A model generated the notes under the pieces. It saw only the letters and a list, made by a program, of their open reading frames with translations, did not search any database and had not been told where the DNA came from. Positions 1-22,383 of a stretch of DNA of 37,165 bases are shown here, one piece after another. The number at the start of each line of letters is the position of its first letter. Position 1 is the stretch's first letter. A program made the position numbers and the translations under genes. The stretch is from Pseudomonadota bacterium (lineage in GTDB: Bacteria > Pseudomonadota > Gammaproteobacteria > Burkholderiales > Burkholderiaceae_C): contig JAIUOW010000025.1 of the NCBI GenBank assembly GCA_020161775.1, positions 1 through 37,165 of the forward strand, given 5' to 3'.

Positions 1-420
1 TTCGAGCGGGACCAGACGCTCTACGACTGGATGCACTACATCGCGCTGATCGAGCGCAAGCCCGGCGCGCTGCGCAACGGCGCACCCTTCAAGACCATGC
101 CCGAGCCGCTGCAGGAGTTGCAGCGCCATCTGCTGCGCCACAGCGGTGGCGACAGGGTGATGGCGCAGGTGCTCATGGGGGTGAGCCTACACGGGTTGGA
201 ACCTGTGCTGGTGGCGGTGGAGCTGGCACTGCAGTCGGGGCGGGTGAGTGCCGAGCACGTGCTCAACGTGCTCTCGCGCTTGCAGGAGCAGCGCATCCCT
301 GAGCCACCGGTGGCCACCATGCTCACGCTCAACACGCCGCCACTGGCCAACCTGCAGCGCTACGACGCGCTGCGCAACGCTCAGCCTCAAGAGGCCTCAC
401 CGGAGTCCGACCATGCATGA
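1..420 (+). CDS. istA: IS21-family transposase IstA, C-terminal fragment (cut by window edge)
   Basis: The frame is open from base 1 and stops at 418-420. It reads as the C-terminal region of the IS21 DDE transposase, after the catalytic core, with the typical helical segment around [15 protein letters not shown] and the HVLNVLSRL stretch. IstA carries out the strand cutting and joining of the element. Its stop codon overlaps the istB start by 8 bases, so the two are translationally coupled. The DDE residues are outside the window, so activity cannot be judged. Confidence 0.85.
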
Positions 421-1228
421 CCTCATGGATGCCTTCAAGACGCTGGGCTTGCACGGCATGGCCAGTGCATGGCCGGAGGTGCTGGGCACCGCCCGCATGA
501 AGTCGCTGGATCACGAGGCCGTGCTGCACCAGCTCATCAAGGCCGAGACCGCGCAGCGCGAGGTGCGCTCCATGGCCTACCAGATGCGCGTGGCGCGGTT
601 CCCGTCGCATCGCGATCTCGCCGGCTTTGACTTCGCCCACACGCCCATCGACGAGGCGCTGGTGCGCCAACTGCACACCCTTGGCTTCGTGGACTCGGCC
701 CACAACGTGGTGCTGGTGGGTGGCCCCGGCACAGGCAAGACCCACCTGGCCACCAGCCTGGGGATCGAGGCCATCCGCCTGCATGGCAAGCGGGTGCGCT
801 TCTTCTCTACGGTGGAGCTGGTCAACGCCCTGGAGCTGGAGAAGGCGCAGAACAAGGCCGGGCAGTTGGCACACCGGTTGATGTACGTCGATCTGGTGAT
901 CCTGGACGAACTGGGCTACCTGCCGTTCACGCAGTCGGGCGGCGCCATGCTGTTCCACCTGCTCTGCAAGCTCTACGAGAGAACGAGCGTGGTGATCACA
1001 ACAAACCTGACCTTCTCGGAATGGAGCAGCGTCTTCGGCGACGCCAAGATGACCACGGCTTTGCTTGACCGCCTCACGCACCACTGCCACATCGTGGAGA
1101 CGGGCAATGAGAGCTGGCGATTCAAGCATTCCAGTGCCGCTGGCGCGGCACCACCAAAGCCACGCAGCAAAGCTCAGAAAGGAGACCGAAAAACAGCAGA
1201 CCCGATAGACTTATCCACAACCGAGTAG
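413..1228 (+). CDS. istB: IS21-family helper ATPase IstB
   Basis: A 271-residue AAA+ ATPase of the IstB/DnaC type, the usual length for the family. It assists IstA in target selection and transpososome assembly. A Walker A motif [11 protein letters not shown] lies near residues 104-114 and a Walker B motif [14 protein letters not shown] near 160-173. The frame is open further upstream to 248, but the ATG at 413 is chosen because the protein then begins like other IstB proteins ([17 protein letters not shown]) and overlaps the istA stop in the way expected for this family. No frameshift is seen. Confidence 0.92.
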
Positions 1229-1300
1229 CCAGAACATCCATCAACCCAGTGGCTCAGTATTCGACGTGATCACTGGCTCAGTTGTGCTGATGAATCAACA

Positions 1301-1914
1301 CCTCCGGCAAGCGTAGTGCTAGCGCATCCACTTGCTTGCGCAGTAGCCAGGTACGGCTGAATAGCCGTCCATTTGGCCGCCGGCGCCTCGCCTACGATGG
1401 AAAACTGATCCACCATCAAGTGCAGCGACTTCTTTGGAAGTGACGCCCCCACGCACAACTTCACAATATCGGTTACTGCATCCGCATTGTGAAAGGGGGA
1501 GACGATCCGCACCACGAATTCGTCGAAGACCTTCAAGGCCTGAACTTCTGCAAGCGCATCTGATAGCGTAGCCTGCGTAATGACCGGAATTACCCGCCGG
1601 TCGGTCTGCTTGCGCAGATACTCGCACACGGTCTTCAAAAGTCGGGCCTGATGTGCGTAGGCAGGGGCCAGGTAGCGGATGTCGATCACCAGCGGCACCT
1701 TCTCGTGGATGGCCGCCTTCAACTCCTTGCTGACTTTTGCAAGGTAAGGCCCCAGCGCGGCACGAAGACCAGCCGCATCCGGCGTTGCAATGATAGGCAG
1801 CAGTTCGAGCAATGGCGTCATGTCATTCCATTGCAACGTCGTCAAGTTCCTGAGCGCAATTCGCTCGCCCTGCTTCCATTTCAGGATGGGCATGTACTTC
1901 CATGTTGTCGCCAT
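1301..1914 (-). pseudogene. Beta-family (T4 beta-like) protein, 3' end removed by IS21 insertion
   Basis: From the ATG at 1914, preceded by a good ribosome site (GGAGGAAG), the protein begins MATTWKYMPILKWKQGERIAL, the characteristic opening of the Beta_protein family (Pfam PF14350 as I recall it). These are usually about 350-400 residues. Here only about 204 native residues remain before the reading frame runs into the IS end at 1300 and stops artificially at 1270 with the IS-derived tail DSSAQLSQ. Family function is unknown; members are common in phages and mobile islands. It is cargo of the surrounding transposon. The longer open frame to 2097 has no support as a start. Confidence 0.6.
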
Positions 1915-2185
1915 ATCTACTTCCTCCATGGTTTCCGATTCTTCTACCCCCCGGCTATTTCCGCCTCCTCCATGTAGAGGATGCGCCGAAAATTGTCCAT
2001 GCCGAGGCATCCGTATGCGCTGATCGCTGATGCATAGATCTGCGCCATAGGCGCTTAGCCGTGCCAGCGCACCCTTAAGGACTGCTACAGATGCCAAGCT
2101 CGACCTGCCGGGTGGCTCACTCCTCGCCGAGAAAGATCCCCTCGAAATCCGGGGCGGTTCAGGACGATTGCCGAGGCGTCAGTTA

Positions 2186-2899
2186 TTAGCGAACGCTGGC
2201 AGTCTCATGCAGTACAAATTCCTTGACGCTACGGATCGCTGCTTCAGCAGGTCCGCTGGCTGTACCGTCAACCTCGGTTTCTAGCCGCGTTTCCTTGACG
2301 CGCAGCAGTTGCGGGCCAACGGTCCGTCCACGCTCGACGATCAACTCTGCGCGGCTGATGCGGGCTCCCTCAAGCATGGCGAGAAATGCAAGCGGCCACA
2401 GGCCACACGCAGCAATCGCAAGCTGCAAACCCTCACGCCTTGGCACGACTTGAGCCGCGCCAAGAACGAACAGCCAAACCGGGGTCACGGCCGCAACAAA
2501 GTAAATCGTCAGAAAAACCATCTTGCGCCAGAAGCGCCGACGATCCCCGGCATGGGCGATTCGGAAAGCTGGCATCAGCCCCTCGCCTGAGTTGATCACG
2601 TGCAACAAGGGCCGGGCAAAGACGTAATCGGACAGGGTGATTGCCGGCTCGAGACCGATGATGTAGCGCGCTTCGTCAGCAGTGATGCTGCGCGTTCCTG
2701 CAACGGCTTGGAAGCCACTCTCCACCAAGTAAGGATGCATGTTCGGATTGGATTCGAGTTCCTGCAAGAAGTCCCGCGCAAAGTTGTAGTGCTCTCGCAT
2801 CCGCCCGCGCGGCGAGGCGGCCCAGTCGTAAATCAGCTTCAAAGTGCCGACAACGCCAAGGGCGCTGGCTAGAAGCTTTAACGCCAGTTCAATATCCAT
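2186..2899 (-). CDS. Unknown protein with three predicted membrane helices
   Basis: A 237-residue protein not recognised as any named family. A hydrophobic segment at about residues 5-25 may anchor the N-terminus. A soluble stretch follows (about 30-125), then two further hydrophobic helices at about 127-150 and 158-182 separated by a short Arg-containing loop. The last ~55 residues are charged and probably cytoplasmic. The start at 2899 is the first ATG and has only a weak ribosome site (AGGCAGA). The gene is co-directional with the truncated beta-like gene downstream (about 270 bp away) and divergent from the 629-codon gene. Codon use is less GC-extreme than the chromosomal genes to the right, as expected for transposon cargo. 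Function is not inferred. Confidence 0.65.
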   Translation of the reverse strand: MDIELALKLLASALGVVGTLKLIYDWAASPRGRMREHYNFARDFLQELESNPNMHPYLVESGFQAVAGTRSITADEARYIIGLEPAITLSDYVFARPLLHVINSGEGLMPAFRIAHAGDRRRFWRKMVFLTIYFVAAVTPVWLFVLGAAQVVPRREGLQLAIAACGLWPLAFLAMLEGARISRAELIVERGRTVGPQLLRVKETRLETEVDGTASGPAEAAIRSVKEFVLHETASVR

Positions 2900-3060
2900 G
2901 AGTCTGCCTTTTTTTGCCTAGTTGCAGCCTAGCGCGGCTGCAGCGCGGCGTCATCCTGCGATCTGAGGAGAGAGGCCAGTTGAACTTAGCCAGACCAAGG
3001 GGGTTCGGCTGCAGAGGGGTACTTTAAGGTGGGGCGCTGGTTCTCAGCCTCTGAACCTGG

Positions 3061-4950
3061 ATGCGGCACTGGGGAGCTCCCACGCTCCCGAGAGGCCCAG
3101 TTCATGGATGTCTAGGACGGGCTGTAGACTGCAGACTTTCGGCTCCACAAGTCGTCAAGCGCTCGCCATCTCACCCTCGATGTCTAAAGACTCAATGGCC
3201 TTTGACTGAACCCATATTCGAACGATTTCCTTTAGACGGGGCGCTATATCGCCTCGTCTGGATCGGCAAGGTAGCGGCAGCCCTACCCAGCATGACCACC
3301 GCCCGGGTCCGGCTCTGGTTGGTTAAGGTCGATGAGTCGGACCCCCATCATCTGAAGTGGGCCTGTCGGCCCAGTGGGCGGCCCAGCACGCTCGTGCTGG
3401 AGGAAGCCGCAGGCTCACTACCCAAGCTGGTGCTGGGATCATTCTGGCGGGACCGGACCCTGCAAGTTGATCACTCGATGCCGCAGGACATCAAGGTAAA
3501 GAATGCAGCCATCGCTCCCCAGCGCTGGCAGATCGTTTACGCGAACGACCGTATGGCCGGCGGTGCGGGAGGCATGCTCATACCACCCACTGACTACCCG
3601 CTTAGCGGCGAGGACGCACGCGGCAGTCCGCTGCATTTCCAGGACGCGCCGCTGCTTCGTTGCTTCTCCGAGAGCGGCCTTGAGTTGCTCATCCCGTGTT
3701 ACGAGATTTTCCGGCGCTTTTATGGCTTGACCTCAGAGTTGGCCAACGCAATGCTGGCGGGCCACTGGAGACGGGAACTGGCGGCGCTGGTGGATCTGGA
3801 ACAGACGGGTGTATCCGAAGACGGGCGGTCTTTCGAAGTGGCGCCTTTGGTAGAGCTGCGCGACATCGGGTGCGTGGGTATTGCTCTTTTCATGGCCGTG
3901 GCAACAGCACGAAGCTGCGCGGCCGACATATTTCTTGCTCTTGAGAACGCGCGCCGCAGCGGCGTGCGGGAGCCATGGATCCTCGCGCGTCCGCCTTGGG
4001 GCGACCAAACCATGTCGATCAGCTTCCTTGGCCATCAGCTGAGCAGCGGCGCTGTGCTGGTGCACTGGATCTACGGGTCAAGCTTTCCGCACTTACCGTA
4101 CAACGTGGTGCGCATCGACCAGCAGATACGCATTCCCGTCCAAAGTGAAGATGTGCCCACGCGAGCGGCTCGCGCCTCGCTGAATGACCGCATGGAAGAA
4201 CTTGCCCAGGCCACAATTGCGCCTGCCGTGGACGCCCGGGTATCCCGCTCGGCCATTCATTTTGGGCTGGGTGAATACTGGGACCGGCTGATCAGGGTCA
4301 AGCGGCAAGCACGTTCACGCACCTACGTCCCGGTCAATCCGCAATCCGAGGGCGATCCCCCTGCGATACGCCGCCGCCGTCTCACGACCGGCCGCCGCTC
4401 CCGCATCGGCCGCTCGCCCACGGCATCCCTGAGCAGCGACAGCCAGAACGTGATCATGAACCGCTTCAATGCGCTGGCTGAGTGCTTCTCGGAGCTGCTG
4501 GAGTCCGGCGACATCCGGGCCCGCGAAGATTACGCGCTGGTCAATCCGGTGCAAATTGGTGCTCATGCTTACTGTGCATTTCCCACCACCATCGGCGGCA
4601 CGCCCCGGCCTTGGACCCTGGTGAACCCGCAAGACCCGCGAGCACGGCTTTGCTGGGTGAGCGAGATCATCGCGCAGGACGGTTCGCTTTACTACTGGGT
4701 CGAAGTTGAGGCTTTGCCGCGGGAGGCGTTCAAGGCACTGGTGATCAAACCGAATGCGCGTGGCAGCCGATTGAGTGCCGTCACCCTTGAGGCCATCCTC
4801 AAGATCGGAGCCATCGGTAAAGGCCAGTGGAAGAAAGCTGCTCTTTTCACGGTGGAGGAGGAGGTTCGCTGGATGTCAGCGCGGCACTCGTTCGCATCCG
4901 GTCGTCTTCGTAGCAGCGTCGTCTTGGGCAAACTGCGTTCTTTGCGCTGA
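3061..4950 (+). CDS. Large transposon-borne protein of unknown function, possible TnsE-like C-terminus
   Basis: A 629-codon frame that ends 23 bp before the convergent tniE. The first ~47 residues look unlike protein sequence, so translation may really begin at the TTG at 3202 (LTEPIFERFPLDG); no strong ribosome site settles this. A central segment near residues 200-240 reads LLIPCYEIFRRFYG followed by LANAMLAGHW. Residues ~430-465 are Arg/Ser-rich and probably a linker. The last ~130 residues have alternating strands (RLCWVSEII, YYWVEVEAL), then GKGQWKK and a late His (SARHSF). That pattern resembles what I remember of the TnsE C-terminal domain of Tn7, the factor directing transposition to replicating plasmids. 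This is recall without alignment; it could equally be unrelated cargo. Confidence 0.6.
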   Translation: MRHWGAPTLPRGPVHGCLGRAVDCRLSAPQVVKRSPSHPRCLKTQWPLTEPIFERFPLDGALYRLVWIGKVAAALPSMTTARVRLWLVKVDESDPHHLKWACRPSGRPSTLVLEEAAGSLPKLVLGSFWRDRTLQVDHSMPQDIKVKNAAIAPQRWQIVYANDRMAGGAGGMLIPPTDYPLSGEDARGSPLHFQDAPLLRCFSESGLELLIPCYEIFRRFYGLTSELANAMLAGHWRRELAALVDLEQTGVSEDGRSFEVAPLVELRDIGCVGIALFMAVATARSCAADIFLALENARRSGVREPWILARPPWGDQTMSISFLGHQLSSGAVLVHWIYGSSFPHLPYNVVRIDQQIRIPVQSEDVPTRAARASLNDRMEELAQATIAPAVDARVSRSAIHFGLGEYWDRLIRVKRQARSRTYVPVNPQSEGDPPAIRRRRLTTGRRSRIGRSPTASLSSDSQNVIMNRFNALAECFSELLESGDIRAREDYALVNPVQIGAHAYCAFPTTIGGTPRPWTLVNPQDPRARLCWVSEIIAQDGSLYYWVEVEALPREAFKALVIKPNARGSRLSAVTLEAILKIGAIGKGQWKKAALFTVEEEVRWMSARHSFASGRLRSSVVLGKLRSLR

Positions 4951-4973
4951 GTATGGGACGCCGTGTTCTGGCC

Positions 4974-6593
4974 TCAGGCTTTCAATCTCGTTCGCACCGC
5001 GCGGTTGACCTGGTAATCCACAGCGGCCGTGGACAGGCTGTCCAGCAGCATGCGGCCCTCAAACACCAATGGGTCCGCATCCGCGCCCGCCTGCCATTTG
5101 GGGGAGGGCAGCGCGGCCAGGATCGGCTGAAGACGCTCCGGCAGTTCAATCCACCGGCCATCCAGCCTGAGCTTGCGCAAGCCCTGAAAATCCAGATCAC
5201 TGTGACGCAGAAGCAGGATCCGCTCCAACGGCGCATTCAACAGTTTGGACAGCAGTTTGGCGGTCAACGCCAAACGGGCCGGCCGACTGGGCGCCGACTC
5301 GATCGCCTCAAGCAAAGCCTTTACATACTTTGCCTGTCGGACCAGCGGCACAGGTTTGGAAGATTTTGACTTCAGCTTGAGCTGCAGCCCATGAAGCGCA
5401 TTCAGATGAGCGATAAAGATGCTCAGCGATGCCTTCATCCCTGGCTTCTTTGCCAGGAGACCGTCCACTGCCTGCTGGCCGACCTGAGCAGCCCGCGCAA
5501 CGCTCGCCTGCGTCAGCAGCGACATCGCGGCGTGGGTGTAGGCTTTGTGTGTTCGAAGTGAGATCGCGGGCGTGCGAGCTAGCAACGCCCGTTCAAACCG
5601 GTCGAAGTCCTCAGCCCATGGCTGCCCGGCAATCGCCTCGCGCCTGGCTGCAAGCAGGCGTTCATCGCTGCGCCGGCGACGCGCGAGGGCGTCGTCCCCG
5701 AGTAAGCCCGTCTCTGCCAGGTGTTGGGACAACAACCCCATGCGCCGGAGTTCTTCGGTCGTAAACACCTGCACCAGCACGGACTCGTCCAGAGGGACCG
5801 CGCGCTGCTGAAGCGCGGCGTCGAGCCTGACGAGGAACTGCAGGTAGCGTGCGGCGCCAAGCGCCAGTTTGTTGGCCCGGCCTGTGTCGTTGCCCCAGCG
5901 GATGAAATCCGCATACAACCGGCGCACACTCTCCTGAGTCAGCAGGTGTTGTGCGCCCAGCTGTTGGGCCACGTTCGAGCGCTTGATGGCGCATTCCAGG
6001 CAGGGGGTGTCGCCCACACCGTTGACCGTGGCGCCGCAGTCCGGACATGGATGACTCGCCGCGGGATGCACGCAGCACACTTTGCACAAGGGCTTGCGTT
6101 CCAGCGTCATCAGGTTGACTGTGCGATGTTTGCCGCAGTGAGAACAGGTCGCCGCAACCGCCGCGCGCAGACATTTGTCACACATCCGACCATTGTGCGG
6201 ATAGGCGCTGCTGCGGCTCAGGCGTGTGCTCAAGGCCGAGCACATATCGCAAGGTTCGGGTGCTCGGTAGTAGCGTGCGCAGGACGCACAGGCCACCCGC
6301 TGCCCTACCCGCAACGCGGCCTTGGGTGTGAGCTTGCCGCAGCGCAGGCAGCTGCGGTCGTCGCGTAGGCAATCGCCGCACGTAGGTTTCTCGTCGTTAC
6401 GATGCGCCCGCGCTGTCTTCCCACAGACATGGCACGGCTGTGGCGGGAAAATGCGCGGATAACAGATAGCGCAGTAACCGGTACCTTGGTGGATACGGTG
6501 AGCCTTGCGCATCTCCTGTCCGCAATTGCCGCAATCCGGGCGGCGGGCTCGGGCGAGGTAGGTGCCCTCCAGTTCCACGAGACGGTTGCTCAA
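4974..6593 (-). CDS. tniE: TniE-like transposition-operon protein: cysteine-rich N-terminus, integrase-like C-terminus
   Basis: A 539-residue protein, last gene of the transposition operon; its start overlaps the tniQ stop by 4 bases. The first ~215 residues hold twelve CxxC pairs (for example CGNC, CAIC, CHVC, CGDC, CLRC, CPDC, CLEC), suggesting about six zinc ribbons or treble clefs in tandem. The rest is helical. The C-terminal ~200 residues (around LLSKLLNAPLERILLLRHSDLDF) resemble the core of a tyrosine recombinase, but the expected Arg and the HxxR/Tyr residues are not visible, so catalysis is unlikely. By position it corresponds to tniE of Tn6022-type elements, whose role is poorly known. 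A DNA-binding target-site factor acting with TniQ is my inference. Confidence 0.7.
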   Translation of the reverse strand: MSNRLVELEGTYLARARRPDCGNCGQEMRKAHRIHQGTGYCAICYPRIFPPQPCHVCGKTARAHRNDEKPTCGDCLRDDRSCLRCGKLTPKAALRVGQRVACASCARYYRAPEPCDMCSALSTRLSRSSAYPHNGRMCDKCLRAAVAATCSHCGKHRTVNLMTLERKPLCKVCCVHPAASHPCPDCGATVNGVGDTPCLECAIKRSNVAQQLGAQHLLTQESVRRLYADFIRWGNDTGRANKLALGAARYLQFLVRLDAALQQRAVPLDESVLVQVFTTEELRRMGLLSQHLAETGLLGDDALARRRRSDERLLAARREAIAGQPWAEDFDRFERALLARTPAISLRTHKAYTHAAMSLLTQASVARAAQVGQQAVDGLLAKKPGMKASLSIFIAHLNALHGLQLKLKSKSSKPVPLVRQAKYVKALLEAIESAPSRPARLALTAKLLSKLLNAPLERILLLRHSDLDFQGLRKLRLDGRWIELPERLQPILAALPSPKWQAGADADPLVFEGRMLLDSLSTAAVDYQVNRAVRTRLKA

Positions 6594-7519
6594 GCGTTCC
6601 TCGCAATCCTGGCCTTCGGACGCCGGGCGAAGCGAACGCGGGCAGCCAGCTGCATCAACTTTGCGGCCCGCGCGGAGGGGTCGGCGGGCAAACCGGTACA
6701 GCGTCGTCGGCCTGGTTTAGAAGTCTTCTTCAAGCCGACACCGCGCATCAGGGATGAATGTGAGGCAGGGCCCGCCAACGTGGCCTGCGCTACGTTGACC
6801 AGAAGCTCACGGCGTTCCGCCACCCGCCAGAAATTCCAAGGCTCCCCGGACAAACGAAACTGCGGATCCCGCCTGACCACTGCGGTCAAAGCTTCGTGGA
6901 ACGAGGCCAGCTGCTGCCCGTCGCCGGCCATCGCTTGGCGCCACAACGATTGGACCCGGATCTGCAGATGGCATTCAGTCTGTGACGCCGGCTCCACCGG
7001 CGTGCGCAATGGCGCCAGACACCGGTCGCACCGAGCCAGCATAAGGGCATCGTGACGCATTGGCGCAAATGGCGTGCCGCACTGCGCACATCCATCGCGC
7101 AGCAAGACGGTGTGTGTGCTGCACACCCAGTTCGACGCCAGTCGCCACGCCAAGCGCAACTGAGCCGGGCCGGTCTGAAGGCAAACAGGGCAGAACAACT
7201 GCCCGTACCGCAGGCGCTGACGGTGGTAAATACCGATCGGCGTCAGCCATCGCTGGAACCCATTGCGCTGCGTCGGTATACCCGCGTCCTGCAAGCGCCT
7301 GGTCAACGTCATGGCCCGCACTTGGTCGCACGGCAAGCCGGTTGCAACGCTGATCAGCTGGACTGCGCGGTCGCCCAAGCTGCGATCCATATCGCGTGTC
7401 CAGATCGACCATCCCAGGCCCATACGCTGCGTCATTGTGGCCGGCGAGTCGCCGCGCTCCCAGGCGAGGTTCACCAGTAGCGAGCCAATCGTTTGGTGGT
7501 CGAACGACATCCCGTGCAT
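6590..7519 (-). CDS. tniD: TniQ-family target-selection protein (TniD)
   Basis: A 309-residue TniQ/TnsD-type protein. The N-terminus reads ESLLSR-like (SFDHQTIGSLLVNLAWERGDSP) and is followed by two zinc-binding regions: FCPVC … WVCSTHTVLL, then CAQCGTPF with ARCDRCLAPL. These are the usual layout of TniQ, in which zinc fingers follow the N-terminal domain. TniQ proteins link the transposase-regulator ATPase to a chosen target, here presumably the comM site. The start is the ATG at 7519, overlapping the tniB stop by one base (TGATG); the ATG at 7510 is an alternative. The protein is shorter than Tn7 TnsD, so extra target recognition may be supplied by TniE. Confidence 0.82.
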   Translation of the reverse strand: MHGMSFDHQTIGSLLVNLAWERGDSPATMTQRMGLGWSIWTRDMDRSLGDRAVQLISVATGLPCDQVRAMTLTRRLQDAGIPTQRNGFQRWLTPIGIYHRQRLRYGQLFCPVCLQTGPAQLRLAWRLASNWVCSTHTVLLRDGCAQCGTPFAPMRHDALMLARCDRCLAPLRTPVEPASQTECHLQIRVQSLWRQAMAGDGQQLASFHEALTAVVRRDPQFRLSGEPWNFWRVAERRELLVNVAQATLAGPASHSSLMRGVGLKKTSKPGRRRCTGLPADPSARAAKLMQLAARVRFARRPKARIARNA

Positions 7520-8415
7520 CAGAGTTCCCTGGGCCGGTTAGGAATGAGCGAGGCTGCGTCACGCCAGTTTCGCGCGCTCTGCAACGCGGCAAACGTAATC
7601 CGGTCCTGTCCGGTCTTGAGTGCGACTTGGGCTGCGCGCAGGATCAGCTTCTTGATGGAGGCGATGGTGCCGTTGCTGCCTTTGAAGATCTCGAACGCCA
7701 TCTCCGGCGCCGCCAGATTTGACGGCTTGGGCAGAGGGATCAAGGACTCAAAAGCGGCGAGCAGGCTGAGAAAGTCTTCATTCGCCGACCACAGCGGCAG
7801 GGACAGCCGCAGGAATCGGCTCACAAACTGAGGGTCAATTGCCAAGGCACGGACCACGTCATGGGTGCCACATGCCACGATGCTCAACTGACGTACGTTG
7901 GACAGCCGCTTGAGCGAGGCCATGAACTGCTTTTGCTGGCGCGCCGGGCTGTTCAGCATCGCATGCAGTTCATCCAGAATCAGAACCGAAGTCTGCTGCA
8001 CCGCCGTCTCGTGGTGAACCAGGGCCTCCAGGCGCTCGGCCGGCGCGTCAGCGCGGTGGTTGACCCCCAGACCCGTGAGGATCGCACTGTACAACCGGCC
8101 CTCGTCTGCGGCCGGCGGCGTCTCGACCCAGAGCACTTTCGCAATCGGGCAATCTGTCTCGTCCAGAACAACCGGATTCAGTCGAAGGAAATGCTTGGTG
8201 AGCGTGGTCTTGCCGTTGTCGCTGTCAGAAATGACGGCACGGCACTCCGGCTTGGTGCTGCGCGGCCGATCCACCAGGTCCTGCAACTCACGCAGGATGT
8301 AGTCGCTGGCGGGGTAGTCAATGTGGTGGTCACGCTGGATGAACTCCAGCTTCTCGGGGACGGAGGCCTCCAGCAAATCCGCTGCTTTGACCGACAGGTG
8401 GGTCCGGGTGTTCAT
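7519..8415 (-). CDS. tniB: TniB transposition regulator ATPase (TnsC homologue)
   Basis: A 298-residue AAA+ ATPase. The Walker A region at about residues 63-70 reads SDSDNGKT, where TniB proteins usually have GDSNNGKT, so the first glycine is replaced by serine while Gly-Lys-Thr is kept. Walker B VLILDELH lies at about 144-151, and a sensor-like stretch LSIVACGTHD follows. TnsC/TniB proteins form ATP-dependent filaments on target DNA and bridge TniQ to the transposase. The gene starts 4 bases inside the end of tniA (ATGA overlap), indicating coupled translation. The family assignment is firm; whether the Walker A change affects ATP use is unknown. Confidence 0.88.
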   Translation of the reverse strand: MNTRTHLSVKAADLLEASVPEKLEFIQRDHHIDYPASDYILRELQDLVDRPRSTKPECRAVISDSDNGKTTLTKHFLRLNPVVLDETDCPIAKVLWVETPPAADEGRLYSAILTGLGVNHRADAPAERLEALVHHETAVQQTSVLILDELHAMLNSPARQQKQFMASLKRLSNVRQLSIVACGTHDVVRALAIDPQFVSRFLRLSLPLWSANEDFLSLLAAFESLIPLPKPSNLAAPEMAFEIFKGSNGTIASIKKLILRAAQVALKTGQDRITFAALQSARNWRDAASLIPNRPREL

Positions 8416-10364
8416 TGGCCGCCGCTCACGTTGAAGGAGCGTATTGTCTTGCCCGCGAAGGCAGAGAAGGGATTGCCAGTGTCCTGGGCCGTCGCTGTTT
8501 GCGGCTCCATCTGGGTTTCGATGCGGGAATGGTCGGCATTTGGGCCGCCGGACGGCGGCACCGGCGCCTTGCCCTTGGTCCGGGCGCGCTTGGTGGCTGC
8601 AACCGCCTGCGCCTGGCGCTCGGCGCTGCGAGCGCGGTAAGCGCGCTTGGCTTGCTTGTCCTCCATGGCATCTCCCTGCGCGTGATCGCGCGCGTCGATC
8701 GCCATCAACTCCTCGACGCTCATGCGGTCCCAGTCCGTGCCATCACCGCCGGCGGTCCTTGGGTCGCAGTCCAGTTTCTGGTACTGCTTGAGCTCGGGAT
8801 CTAGGAACCAGACGTTACGCGGGTAGCGAGGGTGGTACTTGATGATGAATTTGCGTTTTTCGGTGGGGTGGTCCGGGTCGGGTGCGTTCACCCAACGATT
8901 GATCGCCTCATGGTAGTAGTCCTGCTTGCCATTTCGAACGCCGGAGGGCGTGACCACACGTTTCACAAACGGCAGGAAATCGAGCTTGAGTTTCTGGGGA
9001 TCCGCAATCTGGATGGGCAGACCCGCACCCGGCGCGGTGGCGGTCCCCATGATCTCTTTCTCCCAAGCATTGCGCGGGGGCATCTTGAGCTCGCGATGCT
9101 TGTTCACGTGGTAGTGGTTGACGACCCAGTCCGCCACTTCGACCTCGATCTCCCACAAGGTGTACGCCGACTTCTTCCTGGAGTCGTAGGTACCGCGCTG
9201 CTGAGGATTGGAGAACGTGGTACCGGGCTTTTTGCGCAGCATGGCATTGATGTTGCCCACCATGCGCTCGATGTGAGCGCCATAGCGCGGCTTTTTAACG
9301 GGACGCAGCTCCAGGTCGATCCCATGTTCGCGGCACCCAAACCGCAAGGCCTCGCCGCGAAACTCCTTGGCGTTGTCGCAGTGCACCTTGCGGATCTTGC
9401 CTTGCACCGGCCAGCTCCCGGAAACCCCGAGCGATCCTAGGTAGTCCTTCTTGGGCAGCATGCCCATGACCAACGCCATGCCCGCAGCAACTGACGAGGG
9501 TCGCAGCATGCTGAGATAAAAGCCCACAATCATGCGTGTCTTCACGCAGATCAGCAAGGTGAGCCAGGGCCGGCCCCACGGCTGGCGCGTATCCGAGTAC
9601 ACCGCCAGCATGTCCAGCTGCACATGGTCCATCTGCACCGGATTGAGCGGGTTCACAGGAACCGGAAACGTCCCCGGGGTCGGCAGGTTGCGGTCGGCCT
9701 GCTCGGGGTGGCCACGGCGGCGGGACTGGACATCCCGCGGCACGGCCGCGATTCTGTTGCGCACGGTGTTGATGTGCGGGACGGGCTTGTTCTCCAGCTC
9801 ACAACGCTGCTCAACTTCCTCAAAGATGTCCTTGGGTATCAATTGCTGCGAATTGAGGTACAGCGACTCAATGACATCCTGGATGATTTCCTCAACGCGG
9901 GGATCGAGCTGGACTCCGCCCTTGGGCCCTCGGACTTCGTCAATCAGCCCGACCATGCCGCTGGCCTGGTAGTCGCGCAGCCACCCATACAACGTGCCTA
10001 CGCTCTTGCCCGCAGCCTGCGCGGCAGCCCCTACGTCCTTGCGTGTCCTGCGCGCCAGCATCAGCAGCGGCGTGATCAGCTCGAGCCTTTGTTCGGCCTG
10101 CTTGATTTCTTCGTCGGAATAGGCCAGGAGTTCAGGCCGCTTGGCGCCCTCAGCATCGGAATTGCCGGTCGGTAAATCGACTTGGACTTTCGAAGGGTGG
10201 GTCAGCTGGTCAATCAACGCGACCTCAGACTGCTGGTTCGCAGGGTCTTCCAGCAGGATGCGCTCGGGCGTCAACAGCCGCCGCACCTTATACAGACGGC
10301 CCTTGAAGCCGATCAGTACACCAGGACGGACGGCGAAGCCGCCAAGCTCAGCGTTCGCTTCCAT
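8412..10364 (-). CDS. tniA: TniA DDE transposase (TnsB homologue)
   Basis: A 650-residue transposase of the TnsB/MuA/IS481-like rve superfamily. An N-terminal region (about 90-145) has helix-turn-helix character (KSVGTLYGWLRDYQ). The catalytic triad can be placed as Asp246 in QMDHVQLD, Asp330 in HCDNAKEF and Glu366 in AHIERMVGN, with the D-36-E spacing expected. A Mu-transposase-like C-terminal beta-barrel region follows (about 470-560). The last ~90 residues are charged and probably contact TniB. It cuts and joins the 3' ends of the element, with TniC cutting the 5' ends. Its start lies 17 bases inside the end of tniC. All catalytic residues are present. Confidence 0.93.
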   Translation of the reverse strand: MEANAELGGFAVRPGVLIGFKGRLYKVRRLLTPERILLEDPANQQSEVALIDQLTHPSKVQVDLPTGNSDAEGAKRPELLAYSDEEIKQAEQRLELITPLLMLARRTRKDVGAAAQAAGKSVGTLYGWLRDYQASGMVGLIDEVRGPKGGVQLDPRVEEIIQDVIESLYLNSQQLIPKDIFEEVEQRCELENKPVPHINTVRNRIAAVPRDVQSRRRGHPEQADRNLPTPGTFPVPVNPLNPVQMDHVQLDMLAVYSDTRQPWGRPWLTLLICVKTRMIVGFYLSMLRPSSVAAGMALVMGMLPKKDYLGSLGVSGSWPVQGKIRKVHCDNAKEFRGEALRFGCREHGIDLELRPVKKPRYGAHIERMVGNINAMLRKKPGTTFSNPQQRGTYDSRKKSAYTLWEIEVEVADWVVNHYHVNKHRELKMPPRNAWEKEIMGTATAPGAGLPIQIADPQKLKLDFLPFVKRVVTPSGVRNGKQDYYHEAINRWVNAPDPDHPTEKRKFIIKYHPRYPRNVWFLDPELKQYQKLDCDPRTAGGDGTDWDRMSVEELMAIDARDHAQGDAMEDKQAKRAYRARSAERQAQAVAATKRARTKGKAPVPPSGGPNADHSRIETQMEPQTATAQDTGNPFSAFAGKTIRSFNVSGGQ

Positions 10365-11061
10365 ACAGGACGGGCTCCTCGTGCCAGATTTCGGATGACA
10401 TGTTCAGGCTGTTCATGAGGTTGGCGCCGATCGCACGGGTTGTGATAAGGCGCCACAGGACGCCCACTGCTTCCATCCGGTTGGTCATGTCCATGAAAGT
10501 GGCAGCCAGCAACTGTGCCGGCGTGGCCACGCGCAGCTTTTCCATGGTGCGCAGCAGCATCAGGCTTTTGGCGCCGTCGTCGGGGTAGGCACGGTAGTCC
10601 CTCAGGAACTGGACGTTTTGCAGGTAGGTGTTTCGTATGTACCGCTCGGTGACCACTCTGAAGTTCCAGCCGCGGGTCCGGCAGACCTTCTGGGCGGCCT
10701 TGAACCCTGGAAGGAGCTCTTGGCGCCGGTCTTCCAGCTCCTCTCTGTACTTGACCTCAAACAGAGTGGGGCGCCAAGGCTTTGAATCGCCAATGGGCAG
10801 GAACCGCACCAGCACGTCTGGCGTGTAGCTGCGGGCGTTGCCTTCGTCGACCTTGTACTGGATGCGCAGTGGCTGGCCGATGATCTTGCCGACCCTGGCG
10901 TTGAAATCAAGCAAATGGACAAAGTCCCGCTCCAAGGTGCTCTCGTATCCGACCGTGTCACCGCGCAAGGTTTCCACCCGCCCGGTCACGGACCGGTAGT
11001 TGCGTGGAATGGCTCTGACTCCCTCTTCACCCTCAGTCACGCCAATGATTGTAATTTTCAT
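10348..11061 (-). CDS. tniC: TniC, TnsA-like endonuclease subunit of the transposase
   Basis: A 237-residue TnsA-type nuclease. Its N-terminal restriction-endonuclease-like fold shows Glu44 in YESTLERDF, Asp82 in YTPDVLV and Glu102-x-Lys104 in LFEVKYR, the catalytic pattern of TnsA. A winged-helix-like C-terminal domain (about 155-237) would bind TniB. TnsA makes the 5' cuts that turn replicative into cut-and-paste transposition. It is the promoter-proximal gene of the tni operon. The ATG at 11061 has a poor ribosome site and lies 2 bp from a repeat of the transposon end, which suggests control by TniA binding. Confidence 0.87.
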   Translation of the reverse strand: MKITIIGVTEGEEGVRAIPRNYRSVTGRVETLRGDTVGYESTLERDFVHLLDFNARVGKIIGQPLRIQYKVDEGNARSYTPDVLVRFLPIGDSKPWRPTLFEVKYREELEDRRQELLPGFKAAQKVCRTRGWNFRVVTERYIRNTYLQNVQFLRDYRAYPDDGAKSLMLLRTMEKLRVATPAQLLAATFMDMTNRMEAVGVLWRLITTRAIGANLMNSLNMSSEIWHEEPVLYGSER

Positions 11062-11062
11062 A

Positions 11063-11168
11063 CCAATTCAACTAATGCATGTAGCCAGTTTAATAATTTA
11101 AAGTGTATGGTGGATATTTTTCATTGCCAGGCGGCCATGACCAGTTCAATTTATTAATGTAAACGACA
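11063..11168 (-). repeat. Right terminal region of the Tn7-like transposon with three transposase-binding-like repeats
   Basis: Three related segments in the same orientation start at 11063 (CCAATTCAACTAATGCATG…), 11085 (CCAGTTTAATAATTTAAAG…) and 11141 (CCAGTTCAATTTATTAATG…). By eye the first and third agree at about 16 of 21 positions, the second and third at about 15 of 21. Such ~22-bp repeats are where TnsB-type transposases bind. The terminus itself reads TGTCGTTTAC going inward from 11168. The operon promoter must lie in this 107-bp stretch. Confidence 0.7.
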
Positions 11169-11839
11169 GCGGGTCCCCGCCGCGCCCCGGCGAGATATCG
11201 CTGGCGCACCACGGGGTGCTGTTTCTGGATGAGCTGCCCGAATTCCCCCGCGCCGCGCTGGAGGCGCTGCGCGAGCCGCTGGAGACTGGCCACATCACCA
11301 TCTCGCGCGCGGCGCGCCGGTGCGAATTCCCTGCCCGCTTCCAGCTGGTGGCGGCGATGAACCCTTGTCCTTGCGGCTACCTGGGCTCCACGCTCAAGGC
11401 CTGCCGCTGCACGCCCGACCAGGTGGCGCGCTACCAGGGCAAGTTGAGCGGCCCGCTGCTGGACCGCATTGACCTGCATATAGAAGTGACGGCGCTGGCG
11501 CCCGACGCGTTGCTGGGCACGCCACCCGGTGAAGCCACCGAAGCGATCCGCCAGCGCTGCGCCGCCGCGCGCGAACGCGCCATGGCACGGCAGGGCCAGC
11601 CCAACCAGGCTTTGCAGGGTGCGGCCATCGACACCCACGCAGCGCTGCATGAAGACGCGCGCAAGTTCCTGAACACGGCCGCAGCACGGCTGGGCTGGAG
11701 CGCGCGGGCCACGCACAGGGCGTTGAAGGTGGCGCGCACGATTGCCGACCTGGCGGGTTCAGCCGATACGCAGGTGGCGCATGTGGCGGAGGCGGTGCAG
11801 TACCGGCGGGCGTTGGCCGGATCTGCGGCATGCCGCTAG
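11169..11839 (+). pseudogene. comM: comM (YifB-type AAA+ helicase) 3' part, separated by transposon insertion
   Basis: The frame resumes at the transposon border with G-S-P-P-R-P-G-E-I-S-L-A-H-H-G, then VLFLDELPEF (Walker B region), FQLVAAMNPCPCG, LDRIDLHIEV and the C-terminal helical lid LKVARTIADLAG, all typical of ComM/YifB Mg-chelatase-like ATPases. About 223 of the usual ~500 residues remain. The Walker A half would lie beyond the left end of the transposon. ComM is the hexameric helicase that extends branch migration during natural transformation, so its disruption should reduce transformation. An internal GTG at 11216 could start a useless short product. Confidence 0.93.
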
Positions 11840-12335: not shown

Positions 12336-14057
12336 TTAGACAAGCTGCAAATCAGCAGAGTTGACCCCGATCAGACCAATCGCAACGCTAGTGTCGGTAG
12401 AAGTCACTGCCGCCGCAATCTGCATTCCCTTACTAATAGATTCCTCGGGCGTATTGAAGCTGAGGCCGAAGTCTATTGCAAAGCGCTTTCCCACTACATA
12501 CTTGTTGTCAAGAAGGTCCGCGACCCATCCAAAATCAGGGCGCCCCTTAAATGTATGTGCGCTATCGAGTATCGATTTCACCAGCGTCCCACGCGTCTCG
12601 GAACCGCGCGAAAGCGCTCCGGCCCAGTAAGCCAGCCCTTCTGCGTCGACAGCCGCTCTTCCCAGAACGTTTTTATAGATGACGCCAACAAAGTCTCCGG
12701 TCGTCATGCCTGTCGAGTACCCTGTGAGAGTTGGATACTGGACCGCTGCCCGAAAAAAAGCATCGGCAATTGCGGGAATTGACACTCCAGCAGCAGATTG
12801 GCCCAGCCAGAAGGCTATCCCTTCGCTGTCTGGGACGCGATTGAAGAAGGCGGTGTATAGCTCAACGATCGACTTGACTGTGGCGACCGGGACCGCCTTA
12901 GACGCCGCACTGACTGTGAGATCAACCGTTTTGTCGGTAAAGCGCAGCCGTTCAACACTTGCGAGGGTATCTTGTCCGTCAATACCGCCTTTATCCCGCA
13001 CCGCGCCCGCGCTCACTTGGTATCTCGCTATCGGTCCGTTATAGATTGCAGTATCTGTACCTCCGCCTCCGACCAGCACATCGTCACCCCCGTTTCCCCG
13101 CAAAAAGTTCGCGAATCTGTTGCCTTGTAGCCAGTCTGCTACACGGGAACCTTGCACGTTCTCAAGGTCGCCTGCCAACCAAAAAAGAGTAGTCAATGTC
13201 CCTGAGAGGGGCCGGGCAAATCCGACCATTGTGTCCACTAACTGAGAAGGCGTCGCGTCAGGCAACGCTATTTGCCACCCTTCCGTTTGAGCGGCCACGG
13301 AGACCGTGTCGCTTCCACCCGCATCCCAAAGCGTTGCGTAAAAACCGGATCGATAAAGCTCATAAGTGTCGTTTCCCGCCCCAGTTGTCATGTTCTTTCC
13401 ATAAAGATACTGAAGCGCAATCACGTCCAAAGCCATCGGGGTTGCTGGGTCCCAACTGATAACGTTCCAAGACGCCTCATCTTCATAGGACATCACGGAA
13501 ACCCAATCTACATCGAACTCGTTGAAGCCTAGCGAAGCAAGCGTTGGTCGCCCCGTTCCGCCGTCGTCGTGGGTATGCTTTAGACCGAGTACGTGACCTA
13601 TTTCATGCAGCACAAGTGCGTATACCGAGCTGCCTGGGGTGTAGGGGAGATACGCAGCACTGCTGCCGGTATTAAGAAATACATCCCCCGAATCGCCCGA
13701 ATAAACTCCCCATCCACCCGAAACGGGGAAGAACCCTAGCCCGGCTATGCGTCCGCTCGAAAAAAGCTCACCACCCGCCCAAGCAAAGTTAATTTCTGAA
13801 CCAGCAGTAGCAGCAATAGTCGGCCGGTTGAAATACCCTAAGTAGTTGAATTTGATATTCGTGTAGTAACTTATCGTCGAAAAAATTTGTCCGATCACAG
13901 CAGCAGCATCGCGACCCCACGGCTGTCCGAAGGCTCCGTTTGACAGCGACCAGTCGACGGTACGATCGCTTGACAATTGCCAGTAGTAGCCGTGAGTCAA
14001 TGCATCTATGGCCTGATCGCCAGTCGGATTGAAATAGCCCATTCTTGGTGTCGCCAT
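12336..14057 (-). CDS. Serralysin-like secreted zinc metalloprotease with RTX and DUF4214 regions
   Basis: A 573-residue protein without a Sec signal. The catalytic domain (about 1-230) has the zinc site HEIGHVLGLKH at 151-161 and the Met-turn VMSYED at 188-193, as in M10B serralysins. A single glycine-rich calcium-binding repeat GNGGDDVLVGGGGTD lies at about 321-335. Residues ~395-500 match the DUF4214 pattern (two repeats with FFNRVPDSEGIAFW and VLGRAAVDAEGLAYW). It ends in a hydrophobic tail (NSADLQLV), consistent with type I secretion. No ABC exporter or membrane-fusion gene is adjacent. Its base composition is visibly lower in GC than its neighbours, suggesting acquisition. The annotated start has no clear ribosome site. 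Confidence 0.88.
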   Translation of the reverse strand: MATPRMGYFNPTGDQAIDALTHGYYWQLSSDRTVDWSLSNGAFGQPWGRDAAAVIGQIFSTISYYTNIKFNYLGYFNRPTIAATAGSEINFAWAGGELFSSGRIAGLGFFPVSGGWGVYSGDSGDVFLNTGSSAAYLPYTPGSSVYALVLHEIGHVLGLKHTHDDGGTGRPTLASLGFNEFDVDWVSVMSYEDEASWNVISWDPATPMALDVIALQYLYGKNMTTGAGNDTYELYRSGFYATLWDAGGSDTVSVAAQTEGWQIALPDATPSQLVDTMVGFARPLSGTLTTLFWLAGDLENVQGSRVADWLQGNRFANFLRGNGGDDVLVGGGGTDTAIYNGPIARYQVSAGAVRDKGGIDGQDTLASVERLRFTDKTVDLTVSAASKAVPVATVKSIVELYTAFFNRVPDSEGIAFWLGQSAAGVSIPAIADAFFRAAVQYPTLTGYSTGMTTGDFVGVIYKNVLGRAAVDAEGLAYWAGALSRGSETRGTLVKSILDSAHTFKGRPDFGWVADLLDNKYVVGKRFAIDFGLSFNTPEESISKGMQIAAAVTSTDTSVAIGLIGVNSADLQLV

Positions 14058-16424: not shown

Positions 16425-19145
<2,721 letters not shown>

Positions 19146-20425: not shown

Positions 20426-21355
20426 ATGGCGTTTACCAGCGACAACGTTCACATCTTCCTGGCGGTGCTGGATGCAGGCTCGTTCTCGGCCGCCGCGCGG
20501 CGGCTCAAGCGGGTACCGTCGGCCGTGAGCATGGCCATGGGCCACCTGGAGGCCGAGCTGGGCCTGGCCTTGTTTGACCGCGCCGGCCGCGAGCCCCAGC
20601 CCACACCGGCCGCCCGCGCGCTGGAGCCCCAGGCGCGCCAGCTGGCCGCGCAGCTGCGCCAGCTTCAGGCCCATGCGCTGAGCCTGACCCAGGGGCTGGA
20701 AAGCCGCCTGGCCCTGGCGATTGCCCCCGAGCTGCTGACCGCGCCCTGGGCCGCGCCGCTGGCGGCGCTGGCGCAGGACTATCCGCTGCTGGAGGTGGAG
20801 GTGCTGGCCGCCCAGCAGGCCGATGCCCTGCGCCTGCTGCACGAGGGCCGTGTACAGCTGGCCCTGGTGTTCGAGCGGCCCAGCCTGGACGGGCGCGAGG
20901 GTTTCCAGGAAGTGGGCAGCGAAACACTGGTGGCGGTGATGGCGCCTGGCCATCCCGTGCTGCAGGCAGCGGGCGACGGCGGCTTGCTGCGCGAAGCGCA
21001 CCTGATCGAGACCCGCCAGATCGTGGTGGCCAGCCGCGACCGCGCCATCACCGACCCGGGGGTCGTCTATGCGCGCCAGGTCTGGCGCACCGACGCGCCC
21101 GAGGCGGCGCTGAGCCTGATCAAGGCCGGGCTGGGCTGGGGCTGGCTGCCGCGCAGCTTTGTGCGGGCGTCATTGCTGGAGGGCACGCTGCGCGAGCTGC
21201 CGTTCGACAACCTGACCAACGCGCTGGAGCTGTGGGTGGACGTGGTGTGGTCCAAGGAACGGCCGCTGGGCCTGGGCGCACGGCGCTTCATTGAGATGAT
21301 GCGGACCGTGCGGCCCGGCACCACACCGTCAGTGGCTCAGGCTGCTTCCTTGTAG
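20426..21355 (+). CDS. LysR-family transcriptional regulator, likely controlling the PACE pump
   Basis: A 309-residue regulator. The winged helix-turn-helix is at about residues 5-62 ([20 protein letters not shown], then [15 protein letters not shown]), followed by a periplasmic-binding-protein-like effector domain (about 88-295). The start ATG at 20426 gives the standard LysR N-terminal length. It is divergent from the PACE gene with an 82-bp spacer. Its last 19 bases overlap the convergent homocysteine methyltransferase gene, so the two messages share complementary 3' ends. The effector is unknown. Confidence 0.9.
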
Positions 21356-22383
21356 AAAAATTCGCGCTGCACGGCGCGCGCCGCGTGGGGTTGCACCGCC
21401 TCGCGGATGGCGCCAATGTGCTCGGGCGTGGTGCCGCAGCAGCCGCCCACGATGTTCACCAGGCCCTCGGCCGCAAATTCACGCAGCAGCCGGCTGGTGA
21501 CTTCGGGGGTCTCGTCAAAGCCCGTCTCGGCCATGGGGTTGGGCAGGCCGGCGTTGGGGTAGCAGCTGATGAAGGTGTCGCCCGCCACGCGGTTGAGCTC
21601 CTGGATGTAGGGGCGCATCAGCGCCGCGCCCAGGGCGCAGTTCAGGCCGATGGCCAGCGGCTGCGCATGGCGCACGCTGTACCAGAAGGCGGTGACGGTC
21701 TGGCCGCTGAGGATGCGCCCGGACGCATCGGTCACCGTGCCGCTGATGATGAGTGGCAGGCGCTGGCCCGAGTTTTCAAAGTATTCGTCCACCGCGAACA
21801 GCGCGGCCTTGGCGTTCAGCGTGTCGAAAATCGTTTCCACCAGCAGCAGGTCGGCGCCGCCTTCCACCAGGGCCTCGGTCTGTTCATAGTAGGCCGCGCG
21901 CAGGGTTTCAAAGTCGACGTTGCGCGCGCCGGGGTCGTTCACATCAGGGCTGATGCTGGCCGTCTTGGGCGTGGGGCCCAGGGCGCCGGCCACGAAGCGG
22001 GGCTTGTCGGGCGTGCTGAACTTGTCGCAGGCCGCGCGCGCGATTTTTGCGGACGCCAGGTTCATCTCGCGCGCCAGGTGCTCCATGCCGTAATCGGCCT
22101 GGGCGATGGTGGTGGCGCCGAAGGTGTTGGTTTCGATGATGTCGGCGCCGGCGGCGAGGTAACCCTCGTGGATGTCGGCGATCACGTCGGGGCGGGTCAG
22201 GCTCAGCAGCTCGTTGTTGCCCTTGACGTCGTGGGCAAAGTCCTTGAACCGCTCGCCACGGTACTGCGCCTCCGTCAGCTTGAAGCGCTGGATCATGGTG
22301 CCCATCGCGCCGTCCAGGATGGCAATGCGTTGCGCCAGGATGCCGGGCAGGGCCTGGCCGCGGGTGTAGGTGATGGGCTTCAT
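21337..22383 (-). CDS. metH: Methionine synthase homocysteine-binding part (MetH N-terminal module)
   Basis: A 348-residue homocysteine S-methyltransferase barrel matching residues 1-353 of single-chain MetH. The start [11 protein letters not shown], the zinc ligands Cys249 (IGLNCALG) and Cys315-Cys316 ([11 protein letters not shown]) are all present. On its own it has no cobalamin or folate domain, so it must act with the 906-residue partner encoded at 16425-19145. The upstream gap to the divergent rhodanese gene is only 48 bp, leaving no room for a cobalamin riboswitch. An independent betaine- or S-methylmethionine-using enzyme is less likely given the MetH-like sequence. Confidence 0.92.

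What the first reader, a model, noticed from the sequence alone, without database searches (positions are those of the whole stretch)
11061..11250. Tn6022/AbaR-type Tn7-like transposon sitting in comM of a betaproteobacterium
The right end of a tniCABDE element joins comM exactly inside its conserved Gly-Gly-Ser-Pro-Pro-Arg-Pro-Gly-Glu codons. The presumed 5-bp duplication GCGGG covers the end of one Gly codon and all of the next. As I recall, AbaR islands in Acinetobacter duplicate ACCGC, whose complement GCGGT would be the same position with a different Gly wobble base. If so, target choice follows conserved coding sequence across classes and tolerates the third base. It also predicts loss of ComM-dependent transformation.
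Basis: partly seen in the sequence, partly recalled or inferred. Interest (0 to 1): 0.72.

Follow-up and report, generated by a model that had tools for sequence, protein, structure and literature searches.

The report
Tn7-like transposon splitting comM gene
A Tn7-like jumping element has cut a bacterial DNA-uptake gene, comM, at the same codons where it is cut in unrelated bacteria, following the protein-coding sequence while ignoring the third base of codons; the mechanism behind this is largely published.

Summary
The window is a whole contig (C25) of a 4.36 Mb draft. The right part of a tnsABC-tniQ-tnsF element ends ...TGTAAACGACA, followed by GCGGG and the 3' part of comM. The 5' part ends contig C8: GCGGG, then TGTGG. 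Both flanks carry GCGGG, and no second comM was found. Two A. baumannii records with an AbaR-type island carry GCGGT (ACCGC on the other strand) at the same two Gly codons. Among 80 related TnsB loci, 47 have comM 3' starting at this codon; of 47 left/right pairings, 39 show identical 5-bp duplications. Three Acinetobacter hosts with identical TnsF and TnsB carry GTGGC, GTGGA and GCGGT, so one machinery tolerates the wobble bases. The selector TnsF and its need for the ComM Walker B stretch were published in 2023 (PMC10293859), as was the transformation defect caused by AbaR in comM (PMC7508600). The window element is a new member of a known kind, from a deep lineage separate from AbaR. In passing: seven elements without a detectable TnsF hit the same codons, five of them shifted by exactly one base.

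The parts
11169..11173 (+). right copy of the 5-bp target duplication GCGGG (last two bases of one Gly codon plus the next Gly codon of comM)
   Evidence: left copy at C8:201230-201234 (L001 2312-2316)
11169..11839 (+). 3' part of comM (222 codons from the duplicated Gly codon, GSPPRPGE..., then stop)
   Evidence: Pfam Mg_chelatase and Mg_chelatase_C; translation; 5' part of 292 codons on contig C8
11213..11245 (+). Walker B codons GVLFLDELPEF, the region reported as needed by TnsF; starts 40 bp from the duplication
   Evidence: read from sequence; role taken from PMC10293859 passages
11062..11168 (-). right end of the element, terminal TGTCGTTTACATTAATAAATTGAACTGG; its last 14 bases recur near the left end
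10348..11061 (-). tnsA (tniC), 237 aa
   Evidence: Pfam Tn7_TnsA-like_N, E 5.4e-16
8412..10364 (-). tnsB (tniA), 650 aa transposase
   Evidence: PDB TnsB chains, best E 9.2e-32; Mu-transpos_C
7519..8415 (-). tnsC (tniB), 298 aa
   Evidence: Pfam TniB, E 1.5e-50
6590..7519 (-). tniQ (tniD), 309 aa
   Evidence: Pfam TniQ, E 6.1e-13
4974..6593 (-). tnsF (tniE), 539 aa: zinc-finger-like N part, tyrosine-recombinase-like C part without the catalytic end
   Evidence: tblastn to A. baumannii protein 25.5%, E 1e-22, and A. carolinensis 43%, E 1e-108; conserved CxxC pairs; model pLDDT 87, the four best Foldseek matches are tyrosine recombinases, prob 0.97-0.99 but E 0.011-0.052; C end
3061..4950 (+). 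tnsE candidate on the opposite strand (629 aa; true start probably further in)
   Evidence: position and orientation as told for Tn6022 (PMC10293859); homologues in 25 of the other 94-95 loci scanned, by a twice-iterated profile; no Pfam, PDB or fold match
1..2899 (.). part of the cargo: IS21 istB (in ORF 248-1228 +), Beta_protein-domain ORF (1270-2097 -), unknown ORF (2186-2899 -); the contig begins inside the element

Best explanation
It is a Tn7-like, TnsF-type (Tn6022-like) transposon inserted in comM of a Burkholderiales bacterium. TnsF, bound to TniQ, recognises comM DNA that includes the conserved Walker B stretch; TnsC and TnsA/TnsB then insert the element about 40 bp upstream, duplicating 5 bp over two Gly codons (GCGGG here). 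Because the site is fixed by DNA that encodes invariant residues, the same codons are hit in hosts of several phyla while the wobble bases differ. Shown here: both junctions, the duplication, the gene set, the position and the wobble tolerance across hosts. Inferred from published work on a relative: TnsF as selector and the order of events. Inferred: ComM is inactive (split after residue 292, after Walker A and before Walker B), so transformation, if this host does it, should be reduced.
For: Junctions and duplication. No second comM found. tnsA-B-C-tniQ-tnsF in order. AbaR-type islands at the same codons with GCGGT on both sides in 2 of 2 A. baumannii records that hold comM (L041, L042; the third record read, L043, holds none). 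Survey: 47 of 80 loci (the best 80 of 301 found) have comM 3' starting at this codon; 39 of 47 left/right pairings give identical 5-mers with TG/CA ends; all four bases occur at each of the two wobble positions once the window is counted. Identical TnsF (479/479) and TnsB (633/633) in A. indicus, A. sp. Ver3 and A. beijerinckii with GTGGC, GTGGA, GCGGT and 12-13 of 25 wobble differences in the adjoining 75 nt. Mechanism: PMC10293859 passages and section 11.
Against: The two ends lie on different contigs and the stretch between was not assembled. No transposition assay. TnsF of the window is far from the tested AjTn6022 kind (about 25% identity to the A. baumannii homologue), so its selector role rests on homology. 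Elements without detectable TnsF reach the same codons, so TnsF is not the only way to this site. The naming of the tnsE candidate is not confirmed.
Confidence: 0.95

Rival explanations
1. The comM halves were separated by something else (a rearrangement or a Tsy-type tyrosine-recombinase island), and the tns genes are only neighbours.
For: Ends are on separate contigs. In the same host family one genome (G030) has comM cut at another place, in the Walker B codons, by a stretch of about 56 kb, which would suit a Tsy element (its genes were not examined).
Against: Matching 5-bp duplication, TGT...ACA ends, a shared 14-base end motif, tnsA beside the right end, and the same anatomy in dozens of loci.
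Confidence: 0.03
2. Site choice is fixed by TniQ, TnsC or local DNA shape rather than by TnsF, so TnsF is not what makes the element hit these codons.
For: Seven elements without TnsF, in loci long enough to show it, use the same codons, five shifted by one base; TnsF found in 0 of 14 genomes of TnsF-negative loci; the only gene families present in all nine such loci compared are tnsA, tnsB, tnsC, tniQ.
Against: Published removal of TnsF impaired AjTn6022 transposition, and purified TnsF binds comM DNA (PMC10293859). In the TnsB tree the TnsF-less elements lie apart from the TnsF clades (that branch has support 86, not starred), so they may simply have another selector.
Confidence: 0.08

Closest known systems
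Tn6022 / AbaR islands of Acinetobacter (AjTn6022 of Faure et al. 2023)
   Same: Gene set and order tnsABC-tniQ-tnsF, comM target, same two Gly codons, 5-bp duplication, right end ...TGTAAAnGACA
   Different: TnsF about 25% and TnsB about 31% identical to the A. baumannii copy; separate deep clades; about 50 more residues of the recombinase-like C part kept; no resistance gene seen in the cargo ORFs scanned
Elements of Burkholderiales groundwater MAG JACPOK01 (L051), Acidovorax soli (L108) and A. carolinensis plasmid pACNA2.1 (L044)
   Same: Same clade at 100 support; L051 TnsB 73%, TnsF about 70%; same comM codon in L051 (GCGGC)
   Different: L108 is shifted by +1 (GGGTT); L044 lies on a plasmid, with no comM piece in the stretch read
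Tsy elements (TnsF with active tyrosine recombinase; L047 Variovorax looks like one)
   Same: TnsF homologue, comM as reported target
   Different: No Tn7 genes by report; TnsF keeps the C-terminal stretch that the window TnsF lacks
Type I-B1 CAST that uses a crRNA against comM
   Same: Tn7-like element with comM as attachment site, by another selector (PMC11406308, passages)
   Different: RNA-guided; no such genes seen here
Tn7 (glmS, TnsD)
   Same: TnsAB transposase, TnsC, selector protein anchored on DNA that encodes conserved residues, 5-bp duplication (recalled; glmS parallel drawn)
   Different: Tn7 inserts outside its gene (recalled); here the gene is cut

Membership tests
Tn7-like transposon with TnsF (Tn6022-like in the broad sense) | tnsA, tnsB, tnsC, tniQ, tnsF in one run of genes | tested here: met
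Tn7-like transposon with TnsF (Tn6022-like in the broad sense) | 5-bp duplication and TGT...ACA ends | tested here: met
Tn7-like transposon with TnsF (Tn6022-like in the broad sense) | insertion in comM at the Gly-Gly codons upstream of Walker B | tested here: met
Tn7-like transposon with TnsF (Tn6022-like in the broad sense) | TnsF: zinc fingers plus inactive tyrosine-recombinase-like part | tested here: met
   CxxC pairs; four best Foldseek matches are tyrosine recombinases, prob 0.97-0.99 but E 0.011-0.052, so weak by E-value; catalytic end absent by alignment
Tn7-like transposon with TnsF (Tn6022-like in the broad sense) | tnsE on the opposite strand | tested here: inconclusive
   ORF at the right place with homologues in 25 other loci, the A. 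baumannii locus L041 not among them; no match that names it TnsE
Tn7-like transposon with TnsF (Tn6022-like in the broad sense) | comM targeting depends on TnsF | not testable with these tools
   bench assay; published for AjTn6022
Tn6022/AbaR of Acinetobacter (narrow sense) | falls in the clade of the Acinetobacter elements | tested here: not met
   TnsB and TnsF trees
Tn6022/AbaR of Acinetobacter (narrow sense) | antibiotic- or metal-resistance cargo (recalled as typical) | tested here: inconclusive
   none among the main ORFs of window 1-4973 by Pfam and NCBIfam; the C8 end was not scanned and the cargo is incomplete

The most novel reading that the evidence does not exclude
These comM codons are a convergent attachment site. 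Besides TnsF elements, a separate set of Tn7-like elements (tnsA, tnsB, tnsC and a TniQ of about 340-560 aa, no detectable TnsF) in Vogesella, Gallionella, Sideroxydans, Hymenobacter, a Cyclobacteriaceae MAG and a further proteobacterial MAG finds the same codons by its own TniQ/TnsD, usually one base to the left. Together with the published Tsy and crRNA-guided cases, unrelated selectors would have settled on one coding stretch.
Probability: 0.5. Interest if true: 0.5.

Novelty: new member of a known kind. Interest (0 to 1): 0.32.

Why it matters
It extends a medically important class of islands (AbaR) to a clean, deep relative in another group of bacteria, and gives a many-host natural experiment: a transposon homing site that is read from DNA yet tracks amino-acid sequence. 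Three hosts with an identical machinery show directly that wobble bases are ignored. The TnsF-less cases make it testable whether one coding stretch has been chosen by unrelated selectors.

Tried and rejected
Pfam and NCBIfam on TnsF and the tnsE candidate: nothing. PDB by sequence for the tnsE candidate: nothing meaningful; Foldseek on its weak model (pLDDT 65): nothing meaningful. PDB by profile for TnsF: only weak zinc-finger and designed-helix matches. A TnsF alignment was too variable for the genome-contig scan, so TnsB was used. TnsF homologues (some may be Tsy) are rare: 7 of 399 genomes of the order, own one included, and 3 of 369 of the class, own one included. A second comM was looked for and not found. 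One search translated comM 5' in a wrong frame and is not used.

Pairings that failed the duplication test (8 of 47): L066 is identical by eye once an extra codon is allowed (GAGGC); L096 has one mismatch (GCGGC/GCGGT); L090, L111, L116 and one of two for L113 paired with a comM that runs on uninterrupted at the site elsewhere in the same MAG; L071 lies the other way round about 14 bp downstream; L127 has lost the start of comM 3'. L110 gave no left junction. L080 and L102 had no comM 5' match. L121, L090, L110, L111, L080 and L096 end too soon to tell whether tnsF lies beside tniQ and were left out of the TnsF-less count. The Fisher p of 4e-5 for offset -1 against TnsF presence treats loci as independent, which they are not. 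CRISPR as the selector of the TnsF-less elements: no array-like repeats in 7 of 7 loci; in 10 chosen ORFs of L076, L082, L091, L114 and L118 the only Cas-named hits were weak Cas3-helicase matches to one helicase-like ORF (E 8.9e-7), beside defence-type cargo (RmrA, GajB); other ORFs were not scanned. A script pattern for intact sites was wrong twice and was redone.

Full report
Check of the observation. The window is the whole of contig C25 of a 4.36 Mb draft in 32 contigs. At 11165 it reads GACA, then GCGGG (11169-11173), then TCCCCGCCG..., which is comM in frame to a stop at 11839 (Pfam Mg_chelatase and Mg_chelatase_C). It lies at the end of contig C8: comM starts at L001 1441, runs for 292 codons to ...GTG GGC GGC GGG, and then continues TGTGGATTCCACGAATTC.... 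Both flanks therefore carry GCGGG. Aligned to intact relatives the two pieces overlap by one codon, and 28 of 29 relative loci read have an uninterrupted VGGG(S/T/A)PP motif (the 29th, L014, is itself interrupted). No other comM was found in the draft. The stretch between the two ends is not assembled: C8 ends in a sequence shared with the starts of C6 and C26, and C25 begins in an IS21 element.

The element. [quoted passage not shown] TnsF is 43% identical to a protein on the Acidovorax carolinensis plasmid pACNA2.1 and 25.5% to the A. baumannii one. It has the conserved CxxC pairs, and its model (pLDDT 87) is closest in the PDB to tyrosine recombinases (IntI 2a3v, XerA 5hxy; probability 0.97-0.99, E 0.011-0.052, so weak by E-value). 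By alignment it keeps one more segment of the recombinase-like part than the Acinetobacter type but stops before a C-terminal stretch that Tsy-type TnsF proteins have (that this stretch holds the catalytic Tyr is my reading by eye). The ORF at 3061-4950 on the other strand stands where Tn6022 is said to carry tnsE, and has homologues in 25 other loci by a twice-iterated profile, the A. baumannii locus L041 not among them; nothing names it TnsE.

Comparison with AbaR. Of three A. baumannii records read, two hold comM (both deposited as plasmids but 3.7 and 4.1 Mb, so chromosome-sized; that their islands are AbaR-type is my reading from gene set and site). Each shows GCGGT before TGTCAGTTCC and after TGTAAATGACA.

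Survey. The TnsB alignment found 301 relatives in the named genome collection; the best 80 were kept. In 50 of 80 a comM piece lies in the locus, one of them an intact comM some 8 kb away (L101), and in 47 of 80 comM 3' begins at the same codon as in the window. comM 5' was sought in 48 genomes and found in 46. Of 47 left/right pairings examined, 39 have identical 5-mers with TG...CA ends: 32 in the same register as the window, 5 one base to the left, 2 one base to the right. The eight others are explained one by one in Tried and rejected. TnsF-positive hosts with the duplication include Pseudomonadota, Thermodesulfobacteriota (Geomonas) and Tectimicrobiota (Entotheonella); the two Bacteroidota cases are TnsF-less. 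In the 32 in-register cases the second base is C 18, T 10, A 3, G 1 and the fifth is C 24, A 6, T 2; the window adds G. One case, Geomonas, has GCAGC, where the second codon is Ser, not Gly. Across 49 occupied sites (window, L041 and the 47) the first and second codon positions of PGE and of most of GVLFLDE are near invariant while the third positions are not. That conservation is expected of the protein alone and does not by itself show what TnsF reads.

A cleaner test of wobble tolerance came from three Acinetobacter genomes (A. indicus L086, A. sp. Ver3 L087, A. beijerinckii L088) with identical TnsF (479 of 479) and TnsB (633 of 633). Their duplications are GTGGC, GTGGA and GCGGT, and the next 75 nt of target differ at 12-13 of 25 wobble positions in each pair. 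So one machinery serves different synonymous spellings.

Mechanism and what is known. Faure et al. 2023 (PMC10293859; passages, sections 8, 10 and 11) showed for AjTn6022 that TnsF is needed, that it binds comM DNA and TniQ, that a 10-bp stretch in the Walker B codons is required, and that the element inserts in E. coli comM. Walker B of the window comM begins 40 bp from the duplication. Curing AbaR restored transformation in A. baumannii (PMC7508600, passages). A review lists Tn6022 as targeting comM, and a type I-B1 CAST as targeting it with a crRNA (PMC11406308, passages). In this host ComM is cut after Walker A and before Walker B; comEC- and dprA-family genes are present, so an effect on transformation is possible but untested.

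Relationship. In the TnsB tree the window, L051, L108 (Acidovorax soli) and L044 form one clade at 100 support, far from the Acinetobacter elements. In the TnsF tree the window lineage and Tsy-like proteins lie on one side of a 100/100 split and the Acinetobacter type on the other (midpoint root, long branches among the Tsy rows). I therefore file it as a TnsF-type, Tn6022-like element, not as AbaR.

Off the track but related. Seven elements with tnsABC-tniQ in a locus long enough and no TnsF (L076, L078, L082, L091, L095, L114, L118) have the duplication at these codons, five at offset -1; all 31 TnsF-positive ones with a scored duplication are at 0 or +1. A profile search found TnsF in 0 of 14 genomes of TnsF-negative loci (the same profile found it in three genomes). 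The only gene families found in all nine loci compared (the seven, L096, and L104, which has no comM) are tnsA, tnsB, tnsC and tniQ, and in the TnsB tree the seven lie apart from the TnsF clades, in a branch of support 86. No CRISPR-like repeats were seen in the seven loci, and a scan of ten of their ORFs gave no convincing Cas protein. In the papers searched and the passages and sections read I saw no description of such TnsF-less comM elements without a guide RNA; the library covers only openly licensed PMC papers. A cut comM in a genome of the window's own family (G014) looks like a relic of this second type, with GGCGG on both sides by eye, a TnsB remnant and a tnsE-like remnant, and no TnsF.

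Counts were recomputed; the number of tnsE-like loci was corrected to 25, and the claims about cargo and ChlI-domain hits were narrowed.

Noticed in passing
L076, L078, L082, L091, L095, L114, L118: Tn7-like elements without detectable TnsF inserted at the same comM codons, five of seven shifted one base to the left; TniQ of about 340-560 aa; some carry defence-type cargo (RmrA, GajB).
   Followed up: partly
L071 8326-9400 (Planctobacterium marinum): comM cut about 14 bp downstream of the usual site by an element in the opposite orientation, without detectable TnsF.
   Followed up: partly
G030:C1 (L185, L186), same host family: comM cut inside the Walker B codons by a stretch of about 56 kb, which would suit a Tsy-type island; its genes were not examined.
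   Followed up: partly
G014:C34 (L182 3715-6226), same host family: Decayed 2.5-kb relic in comM with GGCGG on both sides, TnsB remnant 32% identical to the window's.
   Followed up: yes
L057 and L059: A Psychrobacter contig and a Halomonas genome carry the same element (TnsF 547 of 547 identical): recent transfer between families, or a stray contig.
   Followed up: no
window 4974-6593: TnsF of this lineage keeps about 50 more residues of the recombinase-like part than the Acinetobacter type and could be an intermediate between Tsy and Tn6022 TnsF.
   Followed up: partly
window 16425-19145 and 21337-22383: Methionine synthase looks encoded in two genes: the homocysteine methyltransferase part apart from the folate/B12/activation part.
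   Followed up: no
window 12336-14057: ORF with metalloprotease-like, RTX calcium-repeat and DUF4214 matches about 500 bp downstream of comM, on the other strand.
   Followed up: no
L044 (pACNA2.1, Acidovorax carolinensis): A relative of the window element sits on a plasmid with heavy-metal efflux genes in the same stretch.
   Followed up: no
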